From Streptomyces sp. NBC_00820 (GTDB taxonomy: Bacteria > Actinomycetota > Actinomycetes > Streptomycetales > Streptomycetaceae), in assembly GCF_036347055.1 (NCBI RefSeq), contig NZ_CP108882.1, positions 6,374,001 to 6,438,000 of the forward strand: a DNA stretch of 64,000 nucleotides, in the 5' to 3' direction. The translations under genes were made by a program, and so were the position numbers. The notes below the pieces were generated by a model that saw only the letters and a program-made list of their open reading frames with translations, searched no databases and was not told the origin of the DNA. Numbering within the stretch: the stretch's first letter is position 1; each line of letters begins with the position of its first letter. Positions 34,940-48,522 of the stretch are shown in pieces.

Positions 34940-35239
34940 TTGAGTACGTACAACTTCCACGGCAGCACCCCCGCCCGCTACGAGCCAGGCGCCGAACTCG
35001 ACCTGGAGGCCCTGACCCGGCTCGCGGACGGCCTCGCCGAGGCGCTGCGGACGGAGTACCCGGTGCTCGCCGGCCACGGCGAGGTGATCCAGGACGAGCT
35101 GGCCCAGGCCGTGGAGGACGGCTACCCGCCCAACCGGGGCCGCATCCGCTCCGCCCTGGAGGCCGTCAGCATCGGAGCGATGGCCGGCACCGGCAGCCTC
35201 GCCTACACCCAGCAGCTCATGAACGCCCTCGGCCTGTGA
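34940..35239 (+). CDS. Small Streptomyces protein of unknown function
   Basis: A 99-residue soluble acidic protein, MSTYNFHGSTPARYEPGAEL at its start, then a helical region (LTRLADGLAEALRTEYPVLAGHGEVIQDELAQAVEDGYPPNRGRIRSALEAV) and a small hydrophobic tail. I do not recognise a named domain. TTG start 34940 is supported by GTGAGG ~7 nt upstream. No operon partner; convergent with the chelatase gene. It looks like a real conserved small gene rather than a shadow because of its codon bias and ribosome site. Confidence 0.7.
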   Translation: MSTYNFHGSTPARYEPGAELDLEALTRLADGLAEALRTEYPVLAGHGEVIQDELAQAVEDGYPPNRGRIRSALEAVSIGAMAGTGSLAYTQQLMNALGL

Positions 35240-35258
35240 CCCACCGGCCCCGCCGCCA

Positions 35259-35282
35259 CCGGCCCCGCCGTCACGGGGCCGG
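35259..35282. terminator. Hairpin terminator between convergent genes
   Basis: CCGGCCCCG (35259-35267) and CGGGGCCGG (35274-35282) with a 6-nt loop form a perfect 9-bp stem. It lies between the ends of the small unknown gene and the sulfur cluster's last gene, so it can stop both. Confidence 0.7.
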
Positions 35283-35321
35283 CCGTCACGGACCCCGCCG
35301 CCGCAGGCCGCCCGGACCGCT

Positions 35322-36074
35322 TCAGGCGCCCAGCGCCAGCGGCGCCGACACGACCGCCTCCGCGTAACGTTCGAGCAGCACCCGGGCCACCTCGGGCGCC
35401 GGTCCCAGCACGTCCGCCAGCACGTCCGCCTCGGCCGCGCCCCGCGCGATGCGGTCCGGGAGGAAGCCGGGGGCGAGGACGTACGGCGCGACGGCCACCC
35501 GGGCGCAGCCGAGGGCGCGCAGCTCGGCGACGGCCTGCTCGGTGCGCGGGAAGCCCGCGGGAGAGCCGGCGGAGGCGAACGCGGGTCGCACGGCGCACCA
35601 ACCGGTGTGCCACCACTCCCGCGCGATGTCGGCGATCACCGCGATCGCCTCCGGGTCGGAGGACCCCGCCGAGGCCAGCACGACCCCGGTCGAGGACTTG
35701 TCGGCGGGACTCAGCCCCGACTCGTACAGCCGCCGTTCCAGCGCGGACAGCAGCAGCGGGGACGGCCCGAGCACCTCCGCCTGCCGGATCCGCAGCCGCG
35801 CCGGCGCGTCCCGCAGGACGGCGGGGATGTCGGCCTTGGCGTGGAAGGCACGCGTCAGCAGCAGGGGCAGCGCCACGACATCACGGACCCCGTCGGCCGC
35901 CAGCGACTCCAGCACGCCGTGGACGGAGGGGAGGTTGAAGTCGAGGAAGCCGGTCTCCACGCGCAGGCCCGGCCGCAGCGACCGCAGCCGCCGTACGAGG
36001 GCGTGCACGGTCGCGGCGTGCCGCGGGTCGCGGCTGCCGTGGGCGATGACGAGGAGGACCGGGGTGCCGGGCAC
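35322..36074 (-). CDS. Sirohydrochlorin chelatase (CbiX-like)
   Basis: A 250-residue class II chelatase with two tandem CbiX halves. The active-site His motif AHGSRDPRH is near residue 11, and a second His is in LTRAFHAKADIP; the second half has the weaker ASAGSSDPEA. It inserts iron (or cobalt) into sirohydrochlorin. At the end of the sulfur operon it most likely completes siroheme for the CysI sulfite reductase. GTG start 36074 begins 6 bp after the ssuC stop, consistent with one transcript. Confidence 0.9.
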   Translation of the reverse strand: MPGTPVLLVIAHGSRDPRHAATVHALVRRLRSLRPGLRVETGFLDFNLPSVHGVLESLAADGVRDVVALPLLLTRAFHAKADIPAVLRDAPARLRIRQAEVLGPSPLLLSALERRLYESGLSPADKSSTGVVLASAGSSDPEAIAVIADIAREWWHTGWCAVRPAFASAGSPAGFPRTEQAVAELRALGCARVAVAPYVLAPGFLPDRIARGAAEADVLADVLGPAPEVARVLLERYAEAVVSAPLALGA

Positions 36075-36080
36075 GGGACG

Positions 36081-36974
36081 TCAGCTCTTCACCAGCAGGC
36101 CGCGGCTGCGCAGCACCCACCGCTCCAGCGGGCTGAAGAGGAGCAGGTCGATGGCGATGCCGACGAACAGGATGAGCAGGATCGCCTCGAACACCATGGC
36201 CATGTCGAGGGCGTTGCGGCCGTTCTCCAGCAACTGGCCCAGCCCGACGCCCAGATCGGGGAAGGACGCGATGATCTCGGCGGCCATCAGCGAGCGCCAC
36301 GAGAACGCCCAGCCCTGCTTCATGCCCGCCACGTACCCGGGCAGCGCCGCGGGCAGCAGGACGTGCCGGACGCCGCGCAGACCGGAGGCCCCCATGGTGC
36401 GGCCCGCCCGCAGGAACAGCGGCGGCACCTGGTCGACGCCGGACACCAGACCGTTGGCGATGGAAGGGACCGCGCCCAGCAGGATCACGGCGTACATCAT
36501 CGAGTTGTTCAGGCCCAGCCAGATCACGGCCGGCGGCACCCACGCCACCGACGGCAGCGACTGCAGGCCCGACAGGATCGGCCCGATCGCCGCGCGCACG
36601 AACCGCACCCGGGCCACCAGCAGCCCCAGCGGGGTGCCGATGAGCAGGGCGAAGAAGAAGCCGAGCAGGCCGCGCGAGACGCTGGTCCAGATGTAGCCGA
36701 GGAGCTTGCCCTCCAGCCAGTCCCGCTCGATCGCGTGCCACACCGCGGCAGGCGAGGGCAGCTTGCTCGGGTCGTCGACGACCTTCAGGGAGATCAGCGC
36801 CTGCCAGACCACCAGGACCACCAGGACCGCGGTGACCGGCGGCACGACCTTGTCGAGGAGGGTGCGGCGCAGCGGAGTACGGCCCGACCGCACCGTCTCC
36901 AGCGCGTCGAGGCCCGCCTCCACGCTTCCGGTGCTCCCCGTCCCGGGAGCGGGCGTCGTCTCAGTGCTGGCCAT
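36081..36974 (-). CDS. ssuC: Aliphatic sulfonate-type ABC transporter permease
   Basis: A 297-residue permease of the NitT/TauT family. Six helices and the ATPase-docking loop GLRGVRHVLLPAALPGYVAGMKQGWAFSWRSLMAAE are visible. It overlaps the ATPase gene by 14 bp (ATG 36974). Family members move sulfonates, taurine or nitrate; being inside a sulfur operon points to a sulfur compound. Sulfonate use needs an SsuD monooxygenase, which is not in this window. Confidence 0.9.
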   Translation of the reverse strand: MASTETTPAPGTGSTGSVEAGLDALETVRSGRTPLRRTLLDKVVPPVTAVLVVLVVWQALISLKVVDDPSKLPSPAAVWHAIERDWLEGKLLGYIWTSVSRGLLGFFFALLIGTPLGLLVARVRFVRAAIGPILSGLQSLPSVAWVPPAVIWLGLNNSMMYAVILLGAVPSIANGLVSGVDQVPPLFLRAGRTMGASGLRGVRHVLLPAALPGYVAGMKQGWAFSWRSLMAAEIIASFPDLGVGLGQLLENGRNALDMAMVFEAILLILFVGIAIDLLLFSPLERWVLRSRGLLVKS

Positions 36975-37740
36975 GGCGGCGGATCTCCCCACGCAGGACT
37001 TCGGTGATCTCCAGGGACAGTTCCGCCACCGGAGCGTCCTCGATGCGGCGCGGCTGCGGGATGTCCACGGCCCACTCCCGGGCCACCCGGCCGGGGCGGG
37101 AGGACAGCAGCACCACGCGCTGGGCCAGTCGTACGGCCTCGCGCACGTTGTGTGTGACGAACAGGACGGAGAGGCCGGTCTCCTTCCAGATCCGGGTCAG
37201 CTCGTCGTGCAGCACGTCCCGGGTGATGGCGTCCAGCGCCGCGAACGGCTCGTCCATCAGCAGCAGGCTGCTCTCCTGGGCCAGCGCGCGGGCCAGTGCC
37301 ACACGCTGGCGCATCCCGCCCGACAGCTCGTGGACGCGCTTGCCGTGGGCGCCCTGCAGCCGGACGAGTTCGAGCAGTTCCTCGGCCCTGGCGCGCCGCG
37401 CCGGCTTGGGAACTCCGCGCAGTTTCAGGGCGAGTTCGATGTTCTTGCCCGCGGTCAGCCACGGGAACAGCGCGTGCTCCTGGAACATCAGCGCGGGCCG
37501 GCCGTCCGTGCTGATGGACCCGGAGGTGGGCCGGTCCAGTCCCGCCACCAGGTTCAGCAGCGTGGACTTGCCGCAGCCCGACGCTCCCAGGAGCGTGACG
37601 AACTCGCCGGGCGCGACATCGAGACTGATGCCGTCCAGGACGAGCTGCCGGCCGTCCGGGCCCGCGAAGGACTTCGAGACGTCGTCGAGGCGTGCGGCGT
37701 ACCCGACCGACTGGTCGGCTTTGGCGAGGGTCGTGGCCAT
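36961..37740 (-). CDS. ssuB: Aliphatic sulfonate-type ABC transporter ATPase
   Basis: A 259-residue ABC ATPase: Walker A GASGCGKST, Q-loop MFQEHALFPW, signature LSGGMRQRVALARAL, Walker B LLLMDEPFAALD, H-loop THNVREAVRLA. ATG 37740 is preferred over GTG 37749 because AGGAGG sits 8 nt upstream. It energises SsuC with SsuA. Confidence 0.94.
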   Translation of the reverse strand: MATTLAKADQSVGYAARLDDVSKSFAGPDGRQLVLDGISLDVAPGEFVTLLGASGCGKSTLLNLVAGLDRPTSGSISTDGRPALMFQEHALFPWLTAGKNIELALKLRGVPKPARRARAEELLELVRLQGAHGKRVHELSGGMRQRVALARALAQESSLLLMDEPFAALDAITRDVLHDELTRIWKETGLSVLFVTHNVREAVRLAQRVVLLSSRPGRVAREWAVDIPQPRRIEDAPVAELSLEITEVLRGEIRRHGQH

Positions 37741-37776
37741 GGTCGTCACCTCCTGGGAGATCGGCGGGGCGGGGCG

Positions 37777-38889
37777 TCAGTCGGTACCGAGACCGGCGGC
37801 GTCGACGGTGCCGGCGCCCTGGCCCCTCAGGACCTTGTTGAGGATCGTCAGGTCGTAGATCCCCTTCAGGTCCGGCTTGTCCAGCAGGCCGGCCTTGACC
37901 GCGTGCTCGGCCTCGGCGTCCAGGGTGGCGGCCAGCGGGTCGTCGGTGACCTGGATGGACTTCCACGCAGGGTCCAGGACGGCCGCGGGCAGCGCCTTGC
38001 CGGAGTCCGTCTCCAGCTGCTCGTTCGTCGCCGCCTTGGCCGCGTCGGGGTTGGCCTTGATCCACTTGTTGGTCTCGACGGAGGCCTTCAGCACCGCCTC
38101 GACGGCCTTGGGGTGTGCCTTGAGGAACTTCTGCGACACGATGATGTTCGTGATCACGAACTTCTTGTCCGGCCACAGCGACGACTCGTCGAGCAGCACC
38201 TTGCCGCCCTCGGCGACCAGCTTGGACGCGGTCGGCTCCGGCACCCACGCGCCGTCTATGGAGCCGGACTTGAAGGCGTCCGGGGTCACCTTGTTGTCGC
38301 TGCGGACGACCGTGACGTCACCCTTGCCGCTCTGCGCGTCGACCTTCCAGCCCTGATCCGCGGCCCAGTTGAGGAACGCCACGTCCTGCGTGTTGCCCAG
38401 CTGAGGCGTGGCGATCTTCCTGCCCTTGACGTCCTTCAGGGACTTGATCTTCTTCGGGTCGACGACGAGCTTCACACCGCCGGACGCCGAACCCCCGATG
38501 ATCCTCAGGTCCGTGCCGCCCGACTTGGTGTAGCCGTTGATCGCCGGGGACGGGCCTATCCAGCCGATGTCGATGGAGCCGGAGTTGAGCGCCTCGATCT
38601 CGGAGGGGCCCGCGTTGAAGGTGGCGTACTCGGCCTTGGTGGCGCCCAGCTGCTTCTGGAAGACGCCCTGCCGCCGGCCGACCAGCGCGGTCGCGTGCGT
38701 GAGGTTCCCGAAGTAGCCGATCTTCACGGAGTCCAGGCCGTCGATCTTCTTCGACCCGGCGGCGACCTTCTGGTTGGCGCCGTCGTCCTTGGCCTCGGAG
38801 CCGTAGCCGCAGGACGCGAGGGCCAGCAGGGGCAGCGCGGCGATCGCGGTCACACCGCGGCGGAACAGTTTCGAGCTGGTGGCAGGCAC
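37777..38889 (-). CDS. ssuA: Sulfonate/sulfur-compound-binding lipoprotein
   Basis: A 370-residue ABC solute-binding lipoprotein. Signal II peptide with lipobox LALASC near residue 27. The mature NitT/TauT-type fold is marked by VKIGYFGNLTHATALVG, the NSGSIDIGWIGPSPAINGY loop and DGAWVPEPTASKLV. It captures the sulfur source outside the membrane for SsuBC. GTG 38889 has AGAGGA 10 nt upstream. The 235 bp separating it from cysN contains a 34-codon ORF and may hold an internal promoter. Confidence 0.9.
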   Translation of the reverse strand: MPATSSKLFRRGVTAIAALPLLALASCGYGSEAKDDGANQKVAAGSKKIDGLDSVKIGYFGNLTHATALVGRRQGVFQKQLGATKAEYATFNAGPSEIEALNSGSIDIGWIGPSPAINGYTKSGGTDLRIIGGSASGGVKLVVDPKKIKSLKDVKGRKIATPQLGNTQDVAFLNWAADQGWKVDAQSGKGDVTVVRSDNKVTPDAFKSGSIDGAWVPEPTASKLVAEGGKVLLDESSLWPDKKFVITNIIVSQKFLKAHPKAVEAVLKASVETNKWIKANPDAAKAATNEQLETDSGKALPAAVLDPAWKSIQVTDDPLAATLDAEAEHAVKAGLLDKPDLKGIYDLTILNKVLRGQGAGTVDAAGLGTD

Positions 38890-39017
38890 GGGAGGTGGTC
38901 CTCTCGGTGGCCCGGCGGTCACGGGTTATCAGGCCGTGGCCGGGAGGTCGGCAAAGGGTCTTCGTCGCTGCTGGTGCTTCACGTGGGGGAGCCGGGCGCG
39001 CGAGCGGTGCGCGTACG

Positions 39018-39122
39018 TCAGCACGCACATCGCGCGACTCCGCCCTGCCCGCTACCGAGGGTCCCGCTGCCGACGCGGCCGCCCTCCTTCGCGAACGTGG
39101 CGTAGAAGTCGGTGGAGTTCAT
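39018..39122 (-). CDS. 34-codon ORF after cysN, unknown
   Basis: Begins 2 bp after the cysN stop (TGACCATG) and runs MNSTDFYATFAKEGG, a Gly-rich middle, and ends ARCAC. Terminal cysteines in a sulfur operon recall cysteine-sensing leader peptides, but it does not match the known RRHVDL leader type seen upstream of cysI. A further short frame starts within its end. It may be a translated spacer before ssuA or chance. Confidence 0.35.
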   Translation of the reverse strand: MNSTDFYATFAKEGGRVGSGTLGSGQGGVARCAC

Positions 39123-39124
39123 GG

Positions 39125-40459
39125 TCAGAAGTCCCAGCCCTCTTCTTCAGATGCGTTCTTGACCGGTTCGGGCGCGGCGAACGACTCGCCGACCATGCCC
39201 GCCGTGAGCGTGGTGCCGTCGCTCGGGTCGATCAGGATGAAGGAGCCCGTGCGGCGCGAGTCGGCGTAGGAGTCGACCGGCAGCGGCTCGGCGGTACGGA
39301 TCTTCACCCGCCCGATGTCGTTGGCGACGAGCCGGCCCGGATGCGGATGCAGGGACAGGTCGTCGAGCGTGAGCCGGGACGGGATGTCCCGCACCACGGC
39401 CTTGACCGTGCGCGTGCCGTGCTTGAGCAGCACCCGGTGCCCGACGGTCAGCGGCTGGTCGGCGACATGGCAGACGGTCGCCTCCACGTCCTGCGTGGTG
39501 GCCGGCGCGTCCTTCGACGGCACGATCAGGTCGCCGCGCGAGACGTCGATGTCGTCCTGGAGCAGGACCGTCACCGACTGCGTCGTCCAGGCCACGTCCA
39601 CCGGCGCACCGAGCAGGTCGATGCCGGAGATCCGCGTCGTGCGCCCGGACGGCAGGACGGTGACCTCCTCGCCCACCCGGAAGCTGCCGGCCGCGATCTG
39701 GCCCGCGTAACCCCGGTAGTCGGGGTGCTCGGCGGTCTGCGGGCGGATCACGTACTGCACGGGCAGCCGGGCGTGGCAGTGCGACAGGTCGTGGCTGACC
39801 GGCACGGTCTCCAGGTACTCAAGGACGGTCGGGCCGCCGTACCAGTCCATGTGCGCGGACGGCTCCACCACGTTGTCGCCGGTGAGCGCCGAGATCGGGA
39901 TCGCGGTGACCGCGGGGACGCCCAGTTCGGTCGCGTACGCCGTGAACTCCTCGGCTATCGCGGCGAACACGGACTCCTGGTAGTCGACGAGGTCCATCTT
40001 GTTCACGGTCAGCACCACGTGCGGCACGCGCAGCAGCGCGGCGATCGCCGCGTGCCGGCGGGTCTGCTCGACCACGCCGTTGCGGGCGTCGACCAGGACC
40101 ACGGTCAGCTCGGCCGTGGAGGCGCCGGTGACCATGTTGCGCGTGTACTGCACATGGCCGGGCGTGTCGGCCAGGATGAACCGGCGGCGCGGGGTCGCGA
40201 AGTAGCGGTAGGCCACGTCGATGGTGATGCCCTGCTCCCGCTCGGCGCGCAGGCCGTCGGTCAGCAGCGCGAGGTCGGGGCCGTCCTGGCCGCGGCTAGC
40301 GGACGCCCGCTCCACGGCCTCCAGCTGGTCGGTGAGGACCGACTTGGAGTCGTGCAGCAGCCGTCCGACGAGTGTGGACTTGCCGTCGTCGACGGAGCCG
40401 GCGGTGGCGAACCGCAGCAGGGTGGTGGCCGAGAGTGCCTCGGTCGTCGTCGTGGTCAT
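39125..40459 (-). CDS. cysN: Sulfate adenylyltransferase GTPase subunit
   Basis: A 444-residue EF-Tu-like GTPase. G1 GSVDDGKST (~residues 21-29), G3 DTPGHVQYTRNM, G4 NKMDLVD. It activates the CysD adenylyltransferase by GTP hydrolysis in ATP + sulfate to APS + PPi. No APS-kinase domain is fused at its C-terminus; the kinase is separate (cysC). Start is 2 bp after the cysD stop. Confidence 0.96.
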   Translation of the reverse strand: MTTTTTEALSATTLLRFATAGSVDDGKSTLVGRLLHDSKSVLTDQLEAVERASASRGQDGPDLALLTDGLRAEREQGITIDVAYRYFATPRRRFILADTPGHVQYTRNMVTGASTAELTVVLVDARNGVVEQTRRHAAIAALLRVPHVVLTVNKMDLVDYQESVFAAIAEEFTAYATELGVPAVTAIPISALTGDNVVEPSAHMDWYGGPTVLEYLETVPVSHDLSHCHARLPVQYVIRPQTAEHPDYRGYAGQIAAGSFRVGEEVTVLPSGRTTRISGIDLLGAPVDVAWTTQSVTVLLQDDIDVSRGDLIVPSKDAPATTQDVEATVCHVADQPLTVGHRVLLKHGTRTVKAVVRDIPSRLTLDDLSLHPHPGRLVANDIGRVKIRTAEPLPVDSYADSRRTGSFILIDPSDGTTLTAGMVGESFAAPEPVKNASEEEGWDF

Positions 40460-40461
40460 GC

Positions 40462-41406
40462 TCAGAAGTACCCCTCGCGCTTGCGGTCTTCCATCGCGGC
40501 CTCGGAGAGCTTGTCGTCGGCGCGGGTCGCGCCCCGCTCGGTGAGCCGGGAGGCGGCGATCTCGGTGATCACGGCGTCCAGCGTGGTCGCGTCGGAGTCG
40601 ACGGCGCCCGTGCAGGACATGTCACCCACCGTCCGGTACCGCACCAGCCGCTTCTCGGTGGTCTCGGTGTCCTTCGGGCCGCCCCACTCGCCGGCCGTCA
40701 GCCACATCCCGGCCCGCCGGAACACCTCGCGCTCGTGCGCGAAGTAGATCTCCGGCAGCTCGATGCCCTCGCGGGCGATGTACTGCCACACGTCCAGCTC
40801 GGTCCAGTTGGACAGCGGGAAGACGCGTACGTGCTCGCCGGGCGCGTGCCGCCCGTTGTACAGGTTCCACAGCTCGGGCCGCTGCCGGCGCGGGTCCCAC
40901 TGGGAGAACTCGTCCCGCAGCGAGAACACCCGCTCCTTGGCGCGGGCCTTCTCCTCGTCGCGCCGGCCACCGCCGAAGACCGCGTCGAACTTCTCGCTCT
41001 GGATCTTCTCCGTGAGCGGCAGCGTCTGCAGCGGGTTACGGGTGCCGTCGGGACGTTCCTTGAGCACACCCCGGTCGATGTAGTCCTGTACGGAGGCCAC
41101 ATGGAGGCGCAGCCCATGGGCGGCGACCACACGGTCCCGGTACTCCAGCACCTCGGGGAAGTTGTGTCCCGTGTCCACATGGAGGAGTGAGAAGGGGACC
41201 GGGGCCGGGGCGAACGCCTTCAGCGCGAGGTGCAGCATGACGATGGAGTCCTTGCCCCCGGAGAACAGGATCACCGGGTTCTCGAACTCGCCCGCCACCT
41301 CGCGGAAGATGTGCACCGCCTCGGACTCCAGCGCGTCCAGGTGGGAGAGGGCGTACGGACCGGCCGTGCCCTCCTCGCCGCCCGTCACCTCGGCGACGGT
41401 CGTCAT
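40462..41406 (-). CDS. cysD: Sulfate adenylyltransferase catalytic subunit
   Basis: A 314-residue PAPS-reductase-fold adenylyltransferase. PP-loop VILFSGGKDSIVMLHLALKAF, DTGHNFPEVL, and the C-terminal RYRTVGDMSCTGAV typical of CysD are seen. With CysN it makes adenosine 5'-phosphosulfate. ATG 41406 overlaps the cysC stop (ATGA); the longer open frame upstream is cysC in another frame. Confidence 0.96.
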   Translation of the reverse strand: MTTVAEVTGGEEGTAGPYALSHLDALESEAVHIFREVAGEFENPVILFSGGKDSIVMLHLALKAFAPAPVPFSLLHVDTGHNFPEVLEYRDRVVAAHGLRLHVASVQDYIDRGVLKERPDGTRNPLQTLPLTEKIQSEKFDAVFGGGRRDEEKARAKERVFSLRDEFSQWDPRRQRPELWNLYNGRHAPGEHVRVFPLSNWTELDVWQYIAREGIELPEIYFAHEREVFRRAGMWLTAGEWGGPKDTETTEKRLVRYRTVGDMSCTGAVDSDATTLDAVITEIAASRLTERGATRADDKLSEAAMEDRKREGYF

Positions 41407-41969
41407 GCCAGTCCCCTCTCGCTGAGCAGCGCGCGGACCAGCGCCGCGGACTCCGGCACGGTCTGGTGCTGCGACTCGATCCGCAGGTCGGGCTCGGCCG
41501 GCTCCTCGTAGGGGTCGTCGACCCCGGTCAGACCCGACAGTTCGCCCGCGGCCTGCTTGGCGTAGAGCCCCTTCACGTCCCGCGCCGAGCACACCTCGAC
41601 CGGGGTCGCCACATGGACCTCCAGGTACGGCGTCCCGTTCTTCTCGTGCCGCTCGCGCACCGCCTCCCGGCTGTCCGCGTAGGGCGCGATCACCGGCACC
41701 AGCGCCTTGACGCCGTTGCGGGCCAGCAGTTCGGCCACGAAGCCGACGCGCCGTACGTTGGTGTGCCGGTCAGCGCGGGAGAAGCCGAGGCCCGCCGAGA
41801 TGAACTCGCGGATCTCGTCCCCGTCGAGGACCTCGACGCGGTGGCCCTCGGCGCGCAGCCGGCCGGCCAGTTCGTACGCGATGGTGGTCTTGCCCGCGCT
41901 CGGCAGACCCGTGAGCCAGACAGTGGCTCCGCTCGTCACCAGGCTCTCCTCAATCCGATCGTGCGTCAT
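41403..41969 (-). CDS. cysC: Adenylylsulfate kinase
   Basis: A 188-residue APS kinase: P-loop GLPSAGKTTIA, DGDEIREFISAGLGFSRADRHTNVRRVGFVAELLARNG, and VKGLYAKQAAGELSGLTGVDDPYEEP. It phosphorylates APS to PAPS. ATG 41969 overlaps the cysH stop (ATGA). Confidence 0.95.
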   Translation of the reverse strand: MTHDRIEESLVTSGATVWLTGLPSAGKTTIAYELAGRLRAEGHRVEVLDGDEIREFISAGLGFSRADRHTNVRRVGFVAELLARNGVKALVPVIAPYADSREAVRERHEKNGTPYLEVHVATPVEVCSARDVKGLYAKQAAGELSGLTGVDDPYEEPAEPDLRIESQHQTVPESAALVRALLSERGLA

Positions 41970-42676
41970 GCGTGCAGCCCGCATTCGGTCTTGGCCCGGC
42001 CTGCCCAGCGGCCGGCCCGCGCGTCCTCGCCCTCCAGGACCCGCCGTGTGCACGGGGCACAGCCGACGGAGGCGTAGCCGTCCATCAGCAACGGGTTGGT
42101 CAGTACGCCGTGTTCGGCAACGTAGGCGTCCACGTCGTCCTGCGTCCAGCGTGCGATCGGGGAGACCTTGACCTTGCCCCGCTTCTCGTCCCAGCCGACG
42201 ACCGGCGTGTTCGCCCGGGTCGGCGACTCGTCGCGGCGCAGGCCCGTCGCCCAGGCCTGGTAACCGGCCAGGCCCTCCTCCAGCGGCCGCACCTTGCGCA
42301 GCGCGCAGCACAGGTCGGGATCGCGGTCGTGCAGCTCGGGGCCGTACTCCGCGTCCTGCTCGGCGACCGTCTGCCGCGGGGTGAGCGTGATGACGTTGAC
42401 GTCCATCACGGCCTCGACGGCGTCCCGGGTGCCGATGGTCTCCGGGAAGTGGTAGCCGGTGTCGAGGAAGACGACGTCGACGCCCTTCAGTACGCGGGAG
42501 GCGAGGTGGGCGACCACGGCGTCCTCCATGGAGGAGGTGACGCAGAAGTTCCTGCCGAAGGTGTCCACCGCCCACCGGAGGATGTCCGCTGCGGTGGCGT
42601 CCTCGAGGTCGCGCCCCGCCTGCTCGGCGAGTTCCCGCAACTCCGCCTGCGTGCGCGGCTCCTGGTCGTCCGTCAT
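41966..42676 (-). CDS. cysH: Phosphoadenylyl-/adenylylsulfate reductase
   Basis: A 236-residue reductase converting APS (or PAPS) to sulfite. It has the 4Fe-4S cysteine pairs Cys123-Cys124 (DLCCALRKVRPLEE) and Cys206/Cys209 (GCAPCTRRV), plus the catalytic Cys232 in the ECGLH tail. The CC...CxxC pattern marks an APS reductase of the plant/Bacillus/Mycobacterium type, not the cluster-free enterobacterial PAPS reductase. ATG 42676 overlaps the zinc-ribbon stop. Confidence 0.95.
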   Translation of the reverse strand: MTDDQEPRTQAELRELAEQAGRDLEDATAADILRWAVDTFGRNFCVTSSMEDAVVAHLASRVLKGVDVVFLDTGYHFPETIGTRDAVEAVMDVNVITLTPRQTVAEQDAEYGPELHDRDPDLCCALRKVRPLEEGLAGYQAWATGLRRDESPTRANTPVVGWDEKRGKVKVSPIARWTQDDVDAYVAEHGVLTNPLLMDGYASVGCAPCTRRVLEGEDARAGRWAGRAKTECGLHA

Positions 42677-42855
42677 GTGCGCTTCTCCCCTGCGTCGTCG
42701 GCTCGCCGCAGCCCCCGGGCGAGCAGCCCGAGGAACTTCAGCTGGAATGCGCGGTTGCACGCCCCGCATTCCCAGGCGCCATGGCCCTGCTCGTTGGGAC
42801 GCAGGTCCTCGTCGCCGCAGTAGGGGCAGTGGAACGGCGCGGCACGTTCGCTCAC
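42673..42855 (-). CDS. 60-aa zinc-ribbon protein of the sulfite reductase operon
   Basis: A small protein lying between cysI and cysH and overlapping both (GTGA, ATGA). Two CxxC knuckles, FHCPYCGDEDL and WECGACNRAF, spaced ~17 residues, form a rubredoxin-like zinc or iron site, followed by a basic helix FLGLLARGLRR. Conserved position in actinobacterial cys operons suggests a role with sulfite reductase, such as electron transfer or assembly. That role is inference. Confidence 0.85.
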   Translation of the reverse strand: MSERAAPFHCPYCGDEDLRPNEQGHGAWECGACNRAFQLKFLGLLARGLRRADDAGEKRT

Positions 42856-44549
42856 GACAGGGCCTCCTCGGAGGCGCGCGCGGCCCAGGTGGCGAACCGC
42901 TCGCCGTCCTCGCGCTCCGCCCGGTAGCGCCTGAGCACCCGCTCGATGTAGTCCGCCAGCTCCTGCGAAGTCACCTTCAGGCCGCGGACCTTGCGGCCGA
43001 AGCCCGGATCCAGACCGAGCGCGCCGCCGAGGTGCACCTGGAAGCCCTCGACCTGGTCGCCGTTCTCGTCCAGGACGAGCTGGCCCTTGAGACCGATGTC
43101 CGCCACCTGGATGCGGGCGCAGGCGTTCGGGCAGCCGTTGATGTTGATGGTGAGCGGCTCGTCGAAGTCCGGGAGCCGGCGCTCCAGTTCGTCGATGAGC
43201 GCGCTGCCCCGCGCCTTGGTCTCGACGATGGCGAGCTTGCAGAACTCGATGCCGGTGCAGGCCATGGTGCCGCGCCGGAACGGGGACGGGTGCACCGTGA
43301 GGTCCAGCGCCTCCAGGCCGGCCACCAGGGACTCGACCCGCGCCTCCTCGACGTCCAGCACGATCATCTTCTGCTCGGCCGTGGTCCGGATACGGCCGGA
43401 GCCGTGCACCTCGGCGAGGCCGGCGATCTTCGCCAGCGTGCTGCCGTCGACGCGTCCGACACGCGGCGCGAAACCGACGTAGTACCGGCCGTCCCGCTGC
43501 CGGTGCACACCGACGTGGTCGCGCCACCGCTCCACCGGCTGCGCGGGCGCCGGACCGTCGACGAGGGGCCGCTTCAGGTACTCCTCCTCCAGCACCTCCC
43601 GGAACCGCTCCGCGCCCCAGTCGGCGACCAGGAACTTCAGCCGGGCCCGGGTGCGCAGCCGCCGGTAGCCGTAGTCGCGGAAGATGGAGATGACGCCCTC
43701 GAAGACGTCCGGGACCTCCGCCAGCGGCACCCAGGCGCCCAGTCGCACGCCGATCTTCGGGTTGGTCGACAGACCGCCGCCCACCCACAGGTCGAAACCG
43801 GGCCCGTGCTCGGGGTGTTCGACGCCGACGAACGCGATGTCGTTGATCTCGTGCGCCACGTCCAGCAGGGGCGAACCGGAGACCGCGGACTTGAACTTGC
43901 GGGGCAGGTTCGAGAACGCCTTGTTGCCGATGACCCGCCGGTGGATCTCCTCGATGGCCGGGGTGCCGTCGACGATCTCGTCCTCGGCGATGCCCGCGAC
44001 CGGCGAGCCGAGGATGACCCGGGGCACGTCGCCGCAGGCCTCGGTGGTGGACAGGCCGACCGCTTCGAGCCGCTCCCAGATCGCGGGCACGTCCTCGATC
44101 CGCACCCAGTGCAGCTGGATGTTCTGCCGGTCGGTGATGTCGGCCGTGCCACGGGCGAACTCCTGCGAGATCTCCCCGATGACCCGCAGCTGCGCGGTCG
44201 TCAGCCGGCCGCCGTCGATCCGCACCCGCATCATGAAGTACTCGTCGTCCAGCTCCTCCGGCTCCAGGATCGCGGTCTTGCCGCCGTCGATCCCGGGCTT
44301 GCGCTGGGTGTACAGACCCCACCAGCGCATCCGGCCGCGCAGATCGTTCGGGTCGATCGAGTCGAAGCCCCGCTTGGAGTAGATCGTCTCAATGCGTGTC
44401 CGCACGTTGAGACCGTCGTCGTCCTTCTTGAGCTGTTCGTTGCCGTTGAGCGGGGTGAAGTGACCCGCGGCCCACTGACCCTCACCGCGGTGACGACTCA
44501 CCTTGCGGCGGGGCGCTGAGGCAGCGGGATTCTGCGGGGTGGCGGCCAT
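42852..44549 (-). CDS. cysI: Ferredoxin-dependent assimilatory sulfite reductase
   Basis: A 565-residue nitrite/sulfite reductase hemoprotein reducing sulfite to sulfide. The siroheme-4Fe4S cysteines are in ACTGIEFCKLA and NGCPNACAR; Arg/Lys sulfite-binding residues sit in DRQNIQLHW and FKSAVSGS. It resembles the mycobacterial SirA rather than flavin-coupled enterobacterial CysI, so ferredoxin is the expected donor (no cysJ here). ATG 44549 follows GAAGGA. A leader peptide gene lies 178 bp upstream. Confidence 0.95.
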   Translation of the reverse strand: MAATPQNPAASAPRRKVSRHRGEGQWAAGHFTPLNGNEQLKKDDDGLNVRTRIETIYSKRGFDSIDPNDLRGRMRWWGLYTQRKPGIDGGKTAILEPEELDDEYFMMRVRIDGGRLTTAQLRVIGEISQEFARGTADITDRQNIQLHWVRIEDVPAIWERLEAVGLSTTEACGDVPRVILGSPVAGIAEDEIVDGTPAIEEIHRRVIGNKAFSNLPRKFKSAVSGSPLLDVAHEINDIAFVGVEHPEHGPGFDLWVGGGLSTNPKIGVRLGAWVPLAEVPDVFEGVISIFRDYGYRRLRTRARLKFLVADWGAERFREVLEEEYLKRPLVDGPAPAQPVERWRDHVGVHRQRDGRYYVGFAPRVGRVDGSTLAKIAGLAEVHGSGRIRTTAEQKMIVLDVEEARVESLVAGLEALDLTVHPSPFRRGTMACTGIEFCKLAIVETKARGSALIDELERRLPDFDEPLTININGCPNACARIQVADIGLKGQLVLDENGDQVEGFQVHLGGALGLDPGFGRKVRGLKVTSQELADYIERVLRRYRAEREDGERFATWAARASEEALS

Positions 44550-44727
44550 GGTTCTACATCCTTCGGGACAGCAAGGGATGGGGGGCGGCGCGCGGCGCCG
44601 TCGATGAAGAGTGCTGGTCGGGCGGCGAGGCAAGGCTCTGACCTGCGTACACGTGCGCACACGGAGACGCGTGCGCGTCATTGCGCAGCGAGAGGTGAGA
44701 CCGGGGGGATCGGCGGTGCTGAGTAGG
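44550..44727 (-). promoter_or_regulatory. Leader between uORF and cysI
   Basis: The 178 nt between the leader-peptide stop and cysI. It contains a GCGCAC/GTGCGC stem (44655-44676) and other GC repeats that could form alternative structures. I see no classical SAM riboswitch. Attenuation coupled to translation of the upstream peptide is plausible. Confidence 0.4.
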
Positions 44728-44811
44728 TCAGCTCGCCGGACAGATGGCGCTGGACATGCGGCCGAGGTCGACGTGCCGCCGACTCACCAAGGCAACTCCA
44801 GTTCCGGGCAT
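44728..44811 (-). CDS. 27-aa cis-regulatory leader peptide of the cys operon
   Basis: A short frame from ATG 44811 encoding MPGTGVALVSRRHVDL, then GRMSSAICPAS and stop. The VSRRHVDLxR...SSAIC pattern is the hallmark of the actinobacterial putative leader peptides placed before sulfur genes (cysteine near the end). It sits directly upstream of cysI, on its strand. By analogy, ribosome stalling at the Cys codon (position 24) under cysteine shortage would affect transcription or translation of the operon. Mechanism is inferred. Confidence 0.85.
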   Translation of the reverse strand: MPGTGVALVSRRHVDLGRMSSAICPAS

Positions 44812-44952
44812 GACGGAAGCCTGTCACGGGGATCTCCGGCCAGTCCACCATTGTCCGTCATCTGGACGAAAGTATTCCGAACAGTGAGACAGGTGAGTGG
44901 GGTGCCGGGCGAGGGCCGTCGGGCGCCCGCCCGGCACGCCCGGGAACGGTTG

Positions 44953-45528
44953 TCAGCCGGCGAACGCCCCGGGCCACGGGCCCGGGGCCGGCACGTCCGG
45001 CTCCAGCTCCACCTTCGTCTCGTACAGCTTGAACCCGCGTCGCTGGTAGTTCTCCATCGCGAACTCGCCGTCCTTGCTGCACGTGTGCACCCACACCCGC
45101 TCGGTCGCGGGCCGCTGCGGCCACCGCTCGGCCAGGTCCCAGGCGCGGGCGGTCCCGTACGACAGCAGGTGGCCGCCGATGCGCCGGCCGCGGAAGGCGG
45201 GGATCAGGCCGAAGTAGGCGATCTCGACCGCGCCCTCGTCGTGCGCGTCCAGCTCGATGTAGCCGGCCGGGGTGCCGCTGTCGTACGCCACCCACGTCTC
45301 CACGCCGGGCCGGTCCAGGTACTCCTGCCAGCGGGCGTAGGACCAGCCGAGCCGGTCGGTCCAGGTGATGTCGCCGCCGACCGAGGCGTACAGGAAGCGG
45401 CTGAACTCGGGGGAGGGGACCTCGGCGCGCACGATCCGCAGGCCGTCGCCCTCGGGGGCGGCGGCCGGCAGGACGTCGGCCGGGGAGGTCTGCTCCAGGT
45501 ACCAGGTGGTGACGGGGACGCTGCTCAT
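44953..45528 (-). CDS. GNAT-family N-acetyltransferase
   Basis: A 191-residue GNAT. The acetyl-CoA pyrophosphate loop is in YFGLIPAFRGRRIGGHLLSYGTARA (QxxGxG-like RGRRIGG), followed by VWVHTCSKDGEFAMENYQRRGF, the C-terminal beta4-alpha4 signature. Substrate unknown; family can acetylate antibiotics, peptides or metabolites. ATG 45528. It is followed downstream by the cys leader, on the same strand, but 140 bp apart. Confidence 0.9.
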   Translation of the reverse strand: MSSVPVTTWYLEQTSPADVLPAAAPEGDGLRIVRAEVPSPEFSRFLYASVGGDITWTDRLGWSYARWQEYLDRPGVETWVAYDSGTPAGYIELDAHDEGAVEIAYFGLIPAFRGRRIGGHLLSYGTARAWDLAERWPQRPATERVWVHTCSKDGEFAMENYQRRGFKLYETKVELEPDVPAPGPWPGAFAG

Positions 45529-45600
45529 GCGGGCCAGGCAATCATCCCGCCCGGCCACCTGTCGATCGCCTTGTCGCCCCGGCCGCATCGGTCGACCCGG

Positions 45601-45656
45601 CGCGTTCCGGACGGCCCTCGCCGCCCGGCGCGTTCCGGACGGCCCTCGTCGTCCGG
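45601..45656. repeat. 28-bp tandem duplication
   Basis: Two near-identical copies of a 28-bp unit starting CGCGTTCCGGACGGCCCTCG, differing at 3 positions, between the GNAT and secreted-protein genes. Confidence 0.75.
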
Positions 45657-45676
45657 CGGCGGTCCGAACGGCCGGG

Positions 45677-47014
45677 TCACTCCAGCGAGCGGTCGAGCGT
45701 GTCCAGCGGCACCGTGAACAGCATCCGGTCCGACACCGACCACACCTCACCCGTCTCCTGCCAGTACGACAGCGAACCCGGGCCTTGGGCCCAGCAGTGG
45801 TGGGAGTGGTCCGTGCCGCAGCGGGCGGCCTTCGCGGCCTCGGTGTCCTGCCGCCAGAGTCCGCCGTGACCGGCCCTGGAACCGGGCAGCCGTCCCACGT
45901 ACCAGGACGAGCGGGCCGCCCCGGCCTTCCGGTACGACAGCACGCCCCGGACCCCGCTCGCCCGCGTCCGGTAGACCTCCACCGGGTCCGCCCGCCCGGC
46001 CGCGTCGGTGGCGAGCAGCCCGCTGCGCGCGGGGTCCTTGCTGAACGCGTACCGCCACAGGCGGGCGCGCCGCTCGCCGCCGGGGGCGGTCCACTCGCCC
46101 GCGACGAGACTGTCCGGCGCCGTGGTGCGGTCCAGGGAGAGGGCGCCGGGGCAGGCCACCGGGCCGGAGGACGCGCAGTGGCCGGTGCGCGGGCGGTAGG
46201 AGCCCACGGCGGGCATCACGTACTGGTAGCCGTCGGCGGACCAGCCGCCGGGCACCCGGCCGATCGCGGGGCTGTCCACGGTGGTGCGCTGGATGCGGTG
46301 CAGGTTGTAGACGTAGAGGGACTCGTCACCGCCGCTCTCCGTGGTGACCAGCAGCTTGTCCTGGTACCAGACCATGCCGGAGACCCGGGACACCAGGCCG
46401 CGGTAGTTCCGGCCGCCGTCGACCGGGACCACGAGGAGGACCCAGCGGTAGACGGGCCGGGCCGGGTCGTCGGCGTCGACGAAGGCGACCTTCGCCAGGC
46501 CGCGCTCCGCGGCGGGTCCGGTGCCGGCACGGTGCGTCCAGCCGCTGAGGACCACCCGGTGGGGGCCCCAGAAGCCGTCGTCGTCGGCGTCCCCGGAGGT
46601 GGTCACCGAGGCCGGCCGCCAGGCCGTGTCCGCGGCGTCCGCCCGGTCCCAGCACCAAGCCCGGGCGGGGGCCGGATCGACGGGCAGGGAGGCGCGGTCC
46701 CGGGCGCCGCAGTCGGCGCCCTCGCGAAGCGTGTGGTCGGCGCTGCGCAGCACGGCGTCCACGCCGACCGGGCGGCCCATGGACGAGGCGAGCCGGTCCA
46801 GCGTACGGGCGGGCACCAACTGCTCCTGGAGCCGCAGCGGGGCGGTGTCGGAGGAGGAGGTCAGCTGCTTGAGCGCGCCGGGGTTGCCGGCGACCGTGGC
46901 CTGCGAGGCGCTGATCATCGTGGCCGCCGCGGTGAGCGCCAGCGCGGTCCCGGCCAGGACCGCGCGCAGCGCCGCGCCCCGTCTGCGTCGGCGGTGTCTG
47001 CCGCGATGCTTCAT
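45677..47014 (-). CDS. Secreted protein, possibly beta-propeller-like, unknown function
   Basis: A 445-residue exported protein: basic start MKHRGRHRRRRRG, hydrophobic signal to ~residue 36, then a soluble domain with repeated strand-rich segments (RWVLLVVPVDGGRNYRG, SGMVWYQDKLLVTTESGGDESLYVYNLH, GGWSADGYQYVMPAVGSYRP). Scattered Trp/Gly blade-like repeats suggest a propeller. No catalytic motif is recognised. GGAGGAG is 5 nt before the ATG. It has several cysteines in pairs, consistent with export. Confidence 0.75.
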   Translation of the reverse strand: MKHRGRHRRRRRGAALRAVLAGTALALTAAATMISASQATVAGNPGALKQLTSSSDTAPLRLQEQLVPARTLDRLASSMGRPVGVDAVLRSADHTLREGADCGARDRASLPVDPAPARAWCWDRADAADTAWRPASVTTSGDADDDGFWGPHRVVLSGWTHRAGTGPAAERGLAKVAFVDADDPARPVYRWVLLVVPVDGGRNYRGLVSRVSGMVWYQDKLLVTTESGGDESLYVYNLHRIQRTTVDSPAIGRVPGGWSADGYQYVMPAVGSYRPRTGHCASSGPVACPGALSLDRTTAPDSLVAGEWTAPGGERRARLWRYAFSKDPARSGLLATDAAGRADPVEVYRTRASGVRGVLSYRKAGAARSSWYVGRLPGSRAGHGGLWRQDTEAAKAARCGTDHSHHCWAQGPGSLSYWQETGEVWSVSDRMLFTVPLDTLDRSLE

Positions 47015-47202
47015 GGTCTCCTCCCGGGGCGAGCCAACTGCGCCTGATGATCGTTACGTTGACCGAGGAGCAGCTGGGAAGTCCCGTCAGGGGATGCTAC
47101 GGCAGTGGTGTGCGCCGCAGGGCCAAGACCCCGCAAACAGGCGAGGGACACCCGTGCGAAAAGGGGCACGCCCCGGCTCGGGCGCCCCGCGCAGAGCCCC
47201 GC

Positions 47203-48522
47203 TCAGCCGCCCCGTTCCGCCGTCCGCCGCCGGGCCACGGCCGGTGCCGCCGAGCGGGGCAGCAGGTCACGGGGGTCCTCGGGCAGCAGTACAGTCACCT
47301 CGACATCCGCGCGGAAACGATACGGCCGATGCTGCAGAAGAGCCCCCAGATAACGCCGTACCCGTGACATCTCCGCCCGCACCGTGACCGTTCGCGACGC
47401 GTCGCCGAACAGGTCCCCGGCCAGGTCCGCCGCACCGCGCCCGGCCGGGTGCTCGGTGAGCAGATAGAGCAATTCGGCGTGCCGGGGGCTGAGTTCGCGG
47501 GACCACGAACCCGCCGGACCGGCGACGGTGAGCGCACCGCGGTCCGGCCGCGTCAGGTCCAGCGCGAGGCGGGTCGCGGCCGTGGCCGGCGGCTCGTCGG
47601 CCGCGCGCAGCAACCAGCCCCCGGCCAGCGGTTCCACCACGCACGGACCCAGCGTGGCCAGCCACCGGCGGCCCGGCGACAGGGACTTGGGCAGCGACAC
47701 CCGCCGCACGTACGGTATCCCGGTCACCGCCGCCGCCCAGCCGTCCCGGTCCACCACCAGCGCCCGCCCGTCCAGCCGGGCCAGCACCGGCGCCCCCACC
47801 GTGCGCAGCCGCTCCAGCGAGTCCAGGTGCAGCTCCCGCAGGCGGGCCTCGGCGAGCTTGGCCACCGCGTCCACCCAGGCCAGGGTCGCCGGGTGCATGG
47901 TCTCCAGCGGGCCGCTGACGTCCACCACGCCGAGGAGCCGGCCGTCGCGGGGGTCGGTGACCGGGGCGCCCGCGCAGGTCCAGGTGGTGTGCGAGCGGAC
48001 GAAGTGCTCGGCGGCGAAGACCTGGACGGGCCGCCGTACGACCGCCGGGGTGCCCACGCCGTTGGTGCCGACGACCTCCTCCCGCCAGTCCGCGCCGACT
48101 TCGAAGCCGAGACCGTCGGCCTTGCGCAGCACCGCCGGTGATCCCTCGCGCCACAGCACGCGCCCCTCGGCGTCCGCGACGACCACGATGTGCCGGGCGG
48201 CGTCCGCGACCGAGAGCAGCCCCTCGCGCAGGACCGGAAGGACATGCCGCAGCGGCGACTCGTCCCGCCGGTGTCGCACCTCCTCGGCGGACAGCAGCCC
48301 GGATCTGAAGTCACGTTCGGGATCGACCCCGCCGCGCAGCATGCGTTCCCAGGACTGCTCGATCACCGGCCGGGGCGCGATCCGGGCCCGCCGGCCCGCG
48401 AGTGTCGCCTCCCGCACCTCGTTCAGCACCCGCGCCGCCCGCGCCGCGTCCACGGCGACCAGGCGCGTCACGTCCATCGGCGGGTTCACCACGGGGGTCC
48501 TCCCGGGAAGCGTGTCGGACAT
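47203..48522 (-). CDS. GAF-domain transcriptional regulator
   Basis: A 439-residue regulator like AcoR/MimR without the AAA+ ATPase. Residues ~30-95 are helical (RVLNEVREATLAGRRARIAPRPVIEQSWERMLRGGVDPER). A GAF sensor spans ~100-210 (VVVADAEGRVLWREGS, VVGTNGVGTPAVVRRPVQVFAAEHFV). The C-terminus (~375-420, LSPRHAELLYLLTEHPAGRGAADLAGDLFGDASRTVTVRAEMSRVRRYL) is a winged helix. In Streptomyces such proteins sit by dehydrogenase genes. ATG 48522. Confidence 0.85.
   Translation of the reverse strand: MSDTLPGRTPVVNPPMDVTRLVAVDAARAARVLNEVREATLAGRRARIAPRPVIEQSWERMLRGGVDPERDFRSGLLSAEEVRHRRDESPLRHVLPVLREGLLSVADAARHIVVVADAEGRVLWREGSPAVLRKADGLGFEVGADWREEVVGTNGVGTPAVVRRPVQVFAAEHFVRSHTTWTCAGAPVTDPRDGRLLGVVDVSGPLETMHPATLAWVDAVAKLAEARLRELHLDSLERLRTVGAPVLARLDGRALVVDRDGWAAAVTGIPYVRRVSLPKSLSPGRRWLATLGPCVVEPLAGGWLLRAADEPPATAATRLALDLTRPDRGALTVAGPAGSWSRELSPRHAELLYLLTEHPAGRGAADLAGDLFGDASRTVTVRAEMSRVRRYLGALLQHRPYRFRADVEVTVLLPEDPRDLLPRSAAPAVARRRTAERGG

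What the first reader, a model, noticed from the sequence alone, without database searches (positions are those of the whole stretch)
44728..44811. 27-codon RRHVDL-type leader peptide before the sulfite reductase operon
Directly seen: an ATG frame with the VSRRHVDLxR and SSAIC pattern, on the cysI strand, 178 nt upstream. Such actinobacterial leader peptides are associated with sulfur genes, but how they act is little studied. A Cys codon near the end suggests stalling at low cysteine. A stem (44655-44676) follows. It would control the whole eleven-gene sulfur cluster.
Basis: partly seen in the sequence, partly recalled or inferred. Interest (0 to 1): 0.72.

Follow-up and report, generated by a model that had tools for sequence, protein, structure and literature searches.

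The report
Cysteine-sensing leader peptide, invariant UGU codon
A tiny gene in front of a Streptomyces sulfur-assimilation operon probably lets the ribosome sense cysteine, and nearly every relative compared here spells the sensing cysteine with the same rare codon at the same place, which makes the mechanism easy to test.

Summary
In detail: a 27-codon frame (44728-44811, minus strand) 178 nt before cysI. It belongs to a described family, NCBIfam NF042934 "putative leader peptide" (33.2 bits, cut-off 27). Such a leader precedes cysI in 124 of 136 actinobacterial loci and 79 of 80 named, nearly all Streptomyces, loci. Poly-Cys leaders at cysI in some families share the motif. The leader itself is not new.

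What I did not find described is codon-level. The key Cys lies 9 residues after the Asp of HVD in 115 of 117 leaders and is UGU in 124 of 124 and 79 of 79. cysI itself uses UGC for 282 of 290 and 404 of 408 Cys codons. Other leaders of the family: UGU in 62 of 63 with that Cys.

Best reading: a leaderless cotranslational sensor of charged tRNA-Cys that stalls at UGU. The output step is unresolved: no intrinsic terminator, no general ribosome-binding-site switch; the spacer is C-rich and G-poor, which would suit Rho. The same leader type precedes cysteine dioxygenase in Streptomyces, a polarity puzzle. New variant of a known kind.

The parts
44728..44811 (-). leader ORF, 27 codons, MPGTGVALVSRRHVDLGRMSSAICPAS
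   Evidence: NF042934 33.2 bits; ATG exactly 10 codons before R1 in 79 of 79 named loci and 70 of 124 of the wider set
44740..44781 (-). family core RRHVDLGRMSSAIC (R1 to C14)
   Evidence: only such motif in the window, R1 at 44781; core positions tabulated
44740..44742 (-). key Cys codon UGU (Cys24), presumed stall codon
   Evidence: UGU in 124 of 124, 79 of 79, 62 of 63, 8 of 8
44767..44783 (-). possible mRNA hairpin inside the leader frame (GUCGGCG-GCA-CGUCGAC)
   Evidence: consensus fold and pair table; R1 codon ends in a purine in 79 of 79 and 60 of 60 Streptomycetaceae leaders
44818..44847 (-). promoter-like TGGACT - 18 nt - CAGGCT, ending 6 nt before the leader ATG: leaderless geometry
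   Evidence: position; consensus TGGACT..CACGCT TCCGtC ATG in 79 named loci; the strict sigma-70 scan found no match
44853..44867 (-). NdgR-like site GTCCAGATGACGGAC (12 of 15 to the published motif, matched by hand)
   Evidence: position; motif and cysI as NdgR target in S. coelicolor from passages of PMC4340878
44550..44727 (-). 178-nt spacer, C-rich, no U-run terminator
   Evidence: position
44638..44647 (-). CGCAGGTCAG, short conserved spacer element, unexplained
   Evidence: 27 of 116 spacers with at most 1 mismatch, 0 of 116 shuffled
44559..44563 (-). Shine-Dalgarno AAGGA of cysI
42852..44549 (-). cysI (nitrite/sulfite reductase hemoprotein)
   Evidence: Pfam NIR_SIR and NIR_SIR_ferr over cut-off; no NCBIfam equivalog over cut-off

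Best explanation
The frame is a real, probably leaderless regulatory leader peptide. While the ribosome makes it, the conserved stretch RxHVDLxR lies in the exit tunnel about 6 to 13 residues behind the peptidyl-transferase centre when the key UGU codon, at a fixed register, enters the A site. If charged tRNA-Cys (anticodon GCA, which reads UGU only by G-U wobble) is scarce, the ribosome stalls there, usually 3 codons before the leader stop, and the downstream sulfate-reduction genes are expressed; if it is plentiful, the ribosome runs off and expression falls. My guess for the output in Streptomyces is Rho-dependent early termination in the C-rich, G-poor spacer, hindered by the stalled ribosome (as recalled for tnaC), about 0.40; translational unmasking about 0.35; mRNA stabilisation or other about 0.25. 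Shown here by comparison: a conserved peptide-coding frame, fixed register, invariant UGU, leaderless promoter geometry. Inferred: the stall, the Cys signal, the tunnel contact, the output.
For: Family match. Leader before cysI in 124 of 136 loci, in 23 of the tool's families, and in 79 of 80 named loci. Cys at position 14 in 115 of 117 and UGU in 124 of 124; Fisher p 1e-25 against the other Cys of the same leaders (15 UGU, 36 UGC), one-per-family 23 of 23. Neighbouring two-fold NNY codons of the core mostly end in C (His 130 C to 11 T, Asp 106 to 23), so UGU goes against the local trend. R1, H3 and D5 invariant as residues with synonymous codons varying: coding constraint. 1-4 codons between key Cys and stop in 111 of 117. 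A tRNA-Cys GCA gene in this genome (30 of 79 tRNA places scanned). The other leaders of this genome precede mostly sulfur-related genes: CysO-like ThiS, rhodanese, FMN reductase, MetY-type enzyme. Poly-Cys leaders with the same motif at cysI in family f4; mycobacterial poly-Cys leaders reported to act as Cys-dependent attenuators (passages).
Against: No expression, footprint or TSS data. The strict promoter scan found nothing. Spacer C>G in 112 of 113, against 66 of 115 upstream of the leader, but the first 200 nt of cysI are also C>G in 112 of 116, with a smaller mean (0.071 against 0.157), so Rho is only suggested. One Cys-bearing relative uses UGC (L204) and one own-genome hit has Gly at the key place (L008). 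The same leader type precedes cysteine dioxygenase, which low-Cys induction does not explain. Related genomes are not independent samples.
Confidence: 0.7

Rival explanations
1. Translational attenuation as reported for mycobacteria: spacer or leader RNA hides the cysI ribosome-binding site and a ribosome stalled at UGU frees it.
For: Reported for poly-Cys relatives of M. smegmatis (passages; the masking detail is recalled). In 21 short-spacer loci the site is somewhat less open than with shuffled leaders (0.400 against 0.456; below all 15 shuffles in 4 of 21), and 0.509 when the leader is masked. Outside the window's family (50 loci) real leader/start duplexes are 1.40 kcal/mol better than swapped ones, p 0.015.
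Against: In 101 loci the site is no more hidden than with shuffled spacers (0.404 against 0.418), and stall minus termination does not differ (-0.007 against -0.002). Over 110 loci real and swapped duplexes are alike (-22.80, -22.90; p 0.65), and in the window's family (60 loci) real is worse by 1.35. Spacer-only consensus fold is no better than column shuffles (5 of 60 as good).
Confidence: 0.3
2. Classical transcription attenuation with an intrinsic terminator in the spacer.
For: A G+C-rich stem at 44655-44676.
Against: No terminator found; TTTTT in 2 of 116 spacers; no conserved spacer structure.
Confidence: 0.05
3. Plain hungry-codon attenuation: any Cys codon would do and the peptide does not matter.
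For: Poly-Cys versions in family f4.
Against: Residues R1, H3, D5 invariant in 117 of 117 strict hits (the search pattern itself fixed D5 and limited the other places) and fixed register; many leaders have one Cys only; UGC is avoided at that one place.
Confidence: 0.12
4. The conserved letters are a DNA operator or RNA structure, not a translated peptide.
For: In Streptomycetaceae the frame carries a GUCG(R)C/GUCGAY hairpin and R1 always ends in a purine.
Against: Across the wider set synonymous codons vary while residues hold; stop 1-9 codons after the key Cys; hairpin letters are not kept outside that family (R1 purine in 37 of 64).
Confidence: 0.05

Closest known systems
NCBIfam NF042934 cis_reg_atten, putative leader peptide
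   Same: profile match over the curated cut-off
   Different: the family is a protein profile; codon identity and mechanism are not part of it as shown by the tool
NCBIfam NF042936 Ms4527A family Cys-rich leader peptide; mycobacterial poly-Cys leaderless short ORFs (Canestrari 2020, not held)
   Same: same core; poly-Cys members stand before cysI in tool family f4 (L141, L143, L146, L149, L151, L153), likely mycobacteria and kin by recall
   Different: below the NF042936 cut-off (27.9 against 45); one Cys instead of a run; no general binding-site masking seen
Cys-run leader peptides of Seliverstov 2005 (PMC1262725, passages)
   Same: candidate leaders before cys operons, no conserved terminator, Rho suggested
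   Different: defined by Cys runs in Mycobacterium, Propionibacterium, Bifidobacterium; no Streptomyces cys leader in the passages seen
uORFC-8-2 before cysS of Rhodobacterales (PMC8632094, passages)
   Same: uORF with Cys control codons
   Different: tandem Cys, UGC dominates, intrinsic terminator
leu attenuators with rare Leu codons; tnaC (recalled)
   Same: synonymous choice of a slow control codon; stall near a Rho entry region
   Different: no family relation; recalled, no call

Membership tests
NF042934 cis_reg_atten | profile score over curated cut-off 27 | tested here: met
   33.2 bits
NF042934 cis_reg_atten | short frame ahead of a metabolic operon on the same strand | tested here: met
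   178 nt before cysI
NF042936 Ms4527A | profile score over cut-off 45 | tested here: not met
   27.9 bits
poly-Cys leaderless attenuators of mycobacteria | run of Cys codons | tested here: not met
   single Cys
poly-Cys leaderless attenuators of mycobacteria | leaderless transcript | tested here: inconclusive
   conserved -35/-10 spacing before the ATG, strict scan negative, no TSS data
poly-Cys leaderless attenuators of mycobacteria | stalled ribosome unmasks the downstream binding site | tested here: inconclusive
   no signal in 101 loci, weak signal in 21 short-spacer loci
poly-Cys leaderless attenuators of mycobacteria | expression responds to cysteine | not testable with these tools
   needs a reporter
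classical trp-type attenuator | intrinsic terminator after the leader | tested here: not met
Rho-dependent tnaC-like leader | C-rich, G-poor Rho entry region behind the leader stop | tested here: inconclusive
   but the cysI 5' end is also C>G
Rfam RNA families | match to a covariance model | tested here: not met
   none at E up to 1 in 35000-48000

The most novel reading that the evidence does not exclude
A codon-specific arrest peptide: stalling needs both the tunnel motif RxHVDLxR at a fixed distance and wobble decoding of UGU by tRNA-Cys(GCA), so the silent change UGU to UGC alone would weaken or abolish regulation; one module of this kind coordinates a large actinobacterial sulfur regulon, and in Streptomyces it is also wired to cysteine dioxygenase, presumably with the opposite sign.
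Probability: 0.35. Interest if true: 0.82.

Novelty: new variant of a known kind. Interest (0 to 1): 0.62.

Why it matters
Attenuators are usually read as counting codons for an amino acid. Here one synonymous codon at one register is kept in genomes that otherwise avoid it (4 of 408 cysI Cys codons in the named set are UGU). If the cause is decoding kinetics, a single silent substitution separates tRNA sensing from peptide sequence, and the same test can be run at many operons of one genome. The cysteine dioxygenase case would show whether one arrest module can give opposite outputs.

Tried and rejected
Intrinsic terminator: rejected. Switching of the cysI binding site by ribosome position: no signal in 101 loci; that control kept the leader intact, so I added leader shuffles for 21 short-spacer loci (weak signal) and swapped duplexes for 110 loci (none overall; opposite signs in two subsets). 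Pairing of CTGAC at the leader stop with GGTCAG in the spacer: looked likely by eye; variants there were not compensated, no formal test made. GCCAU of the leader with AUGGC at the cysI start, seen in the consensus fold: not supported. Rfam: nothing. Whole 272-nt fold: no better than shuffles. The column-shuffle result for leader plus spacer (-22.9 against -3.3) rests on the leader-coding hairpin, whose letters are also held by the protein; I do not count it as proof of RNA structure.

Literature: (listings) gave no paper that I saw describing the invariant UGU; the library holds only CC-licensed PMC papers, and Canestrari 2020 is not in it, so it may be in print. Papers seen as passages only: PMC8079986, PMC1262725, PMC13236596, PMC4633059, PMC9094748, PMC8632094, PMC4340878, PMC9031893, PMC7790235 (a reference entry), PMC4833913, PMC2580772.

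Full report
Observation. The 27-codon frame is at the stated place, 178 nt before the cysI ATG. It scores 33.2 bits against NF042934 "putative leader peptide" (cut-off 27) and 27.9 against the Ms4527A family (cut-off 45). It has no Pfam match, and 35000-48000 has no Rfam match at E up to 1. It is the only frame with the core motif in the window.

Sample. cysI was sought in 61 genomes of the window's family (61 with a match) and 118 of its class (88 with a match). Eight genomes are in both lists, so 141 had cysI. I took 137 upstream regions; four (G010, G115, G117, G132) begin too near a contig end and were left out. One more (L138) had under 100 nt upstream, leaving 136. A motif blind to the Cys codon was found in 117 of 136, in 0 of 2720 single-base shuffles and on the reverse strand of 12 of 136. 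Allowing H or N at position 6 gave 124 of 136, 104 distinct DNA sequences, in 23 of the tool's families.

Codon result. In the 117 strict hits the key Cys is the 14th residue of the core in 115 and the 15th in 2. Its codon is UGU in 124 of 124 and 79 of 79. Other Cys of the same leaders: 36 UGC, 15 UGU and 17 UGC, 0 UGU. Cys codons of cysI: 282 UGC, 8 UGU (whole gene or its start, 137 loci) and 404 UGC, 4 UGU. Fisher p is 1e-25 against the other leader Cys and 8e-97 against cysI; with one leader per family, 23 of 23. Related genomes are not independent, so these values only rank the effect. Other two-fold pyrimidine codons in the core mostly end in C.

Other leaders. The family search finds 8 places over the cut-off in the window's genome, this one included, and hits in 29 of 40 genomes of the class; none in 14 control genomes. 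It misses some real leaders: G085 has none although L062 shows one. Of 71 places (68 rows plus three weaker own-genome hits) I read 64; left out were the window's own, five cysI leaders already counted and one at a contig end (G077:C174). In these 64 the key residue is Cys-UGU in 62, Cys-UGC in one (L204) and Gly in one (L008); four of the 62 are cysI leaders also in the first set, so 58 of 59 Cys-bearing non-cysI leaders are UGU. The own-genome ones stand before a luciferase-like monooxygenase, a ThiS-like protein followed by a cysteine-synthase-like ORF, cysteine dioxygenase, an FMN reductase, an ABC permease, a rhodanese, a GST-domain protein, a flavin reductase, a 2OG-Fe oxygenase and a Cys/Met PLP enzyme (first ORF chosen by codon composition).

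Cysteine dioxygenase. The enzyme was found in 47 of 61 genomes of the family. Of the 30 loci handed out, the 8 of the window's genus all have the leader and the 22 of other genera have none by my motif within 900 nt; UGU 8 of 8, other Cys 15 UGC. A gene that destroys cysteine should not be induced by cysteine scarcity, so the output there is either inverted or the signal is not simply low cysteine.

Promoter. Among 79 named loci the consensus before the leader is GTCC.cat...GGA....g.TGGACTg...18 nt...CACGCT TCCGtC ATG, in the window TGGACT at 44847 and CAGGCT ending at 44818, six nt before the ATG. This fits a leaderless transcript, but the strict sigma-70 scan finds nothing. GTCCAGATGACGGAC (44853-44867) matches 12 of 15 places of the NdgR motif; S. 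coelicolor cysI is an NdgR target in ChIP-seq (PMC4340878, passages).

Output. 116 loci had an assignable cysI start; spacer 28-233 nt, median 133. TTTTT occurs in 2 of 116. Binding-site openness: 0.404 against 0.418 with shuffled spacers; stall minus termination -0.007 against -0.002; 101 loci (ribosome front taken as 13 nt past the A-site codon start). In 21 short-spacer loci there is a weak sign of masking by the leader. Leader/start duplexes: no difference over 110 loci, worse than swapped in the window's family, better in the other 50. Spacer composition C 0.44, G 0.28; C>G in 112 of 113 spacers, 66 of 115 regions upstream of the leader, and 112 of 116 cysI beginnings, the last with a smaller mean. 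So Rho is suggested, not shown.

Streptomycetaceae extra. The R1 codon ends in a purine in 79 of 79 named and 60 of 60 family leaders, against 31% of cysI CGN codons; elsewhere 37 of 64. This fits a hairpin within the frame (44767-44783) whose inner pairs hold in 57-60 of 60 family members, while some outer pairs fail. Changes are one-sided only.

Reading. The conserved residues, fixed register, single invariant codon and a tRNA-Cys with anticodon GCA (30 of 79 tRNA places scanned) fit a nascent-chain-assisted stall at a slowly read Cys codon. The stall, the signal and the output are inferred.

Noticed in passing
L319-L326; own genome L003: NF042934-type leader RVHMDLVRYAGCVCRPSC before cysteine dioxygenase in all 8 loci examined of the window's genus, none in 22 of other genera.
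   Followed up: partly
window 44638-44647 and relatives: CGCAGGTCAG kept in 27 of 116 spacers (at most 1 mismatch), 0 of 116 shuffled; function unknown.
   Followed up: partly
window 44779-44781 and relatives: Purine-ending Arg codon at R1 in all 139 Streptomycetaceae leaders counted (79 named, 60 family; four overlap), CGA or CGG, although CGC dominates in cysI.
   Followed up: partly
L001 and L008 (G000:C1:7044997-7046621): Two leaders about 1.6 kb apart on the same strand; the first has Gly at the key place and UGC at position 10.
   Followed up: no
L134, L142, L152, L130: Leaders on the divergent strand next to cysI, seen as family hits; L130 has one on each strand.
   Followed up: no
L204: Only Cys-bearing leader read with UGC at the key place; downstream gene not examined.
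   Followed up: no
window 42673-42855: 60-codon ORF with four CxxC-type Cys overlapping the cysI stop, homologous by position to SCO6101 (recalled from the gene list in PMC4340878).
   Followed up: no
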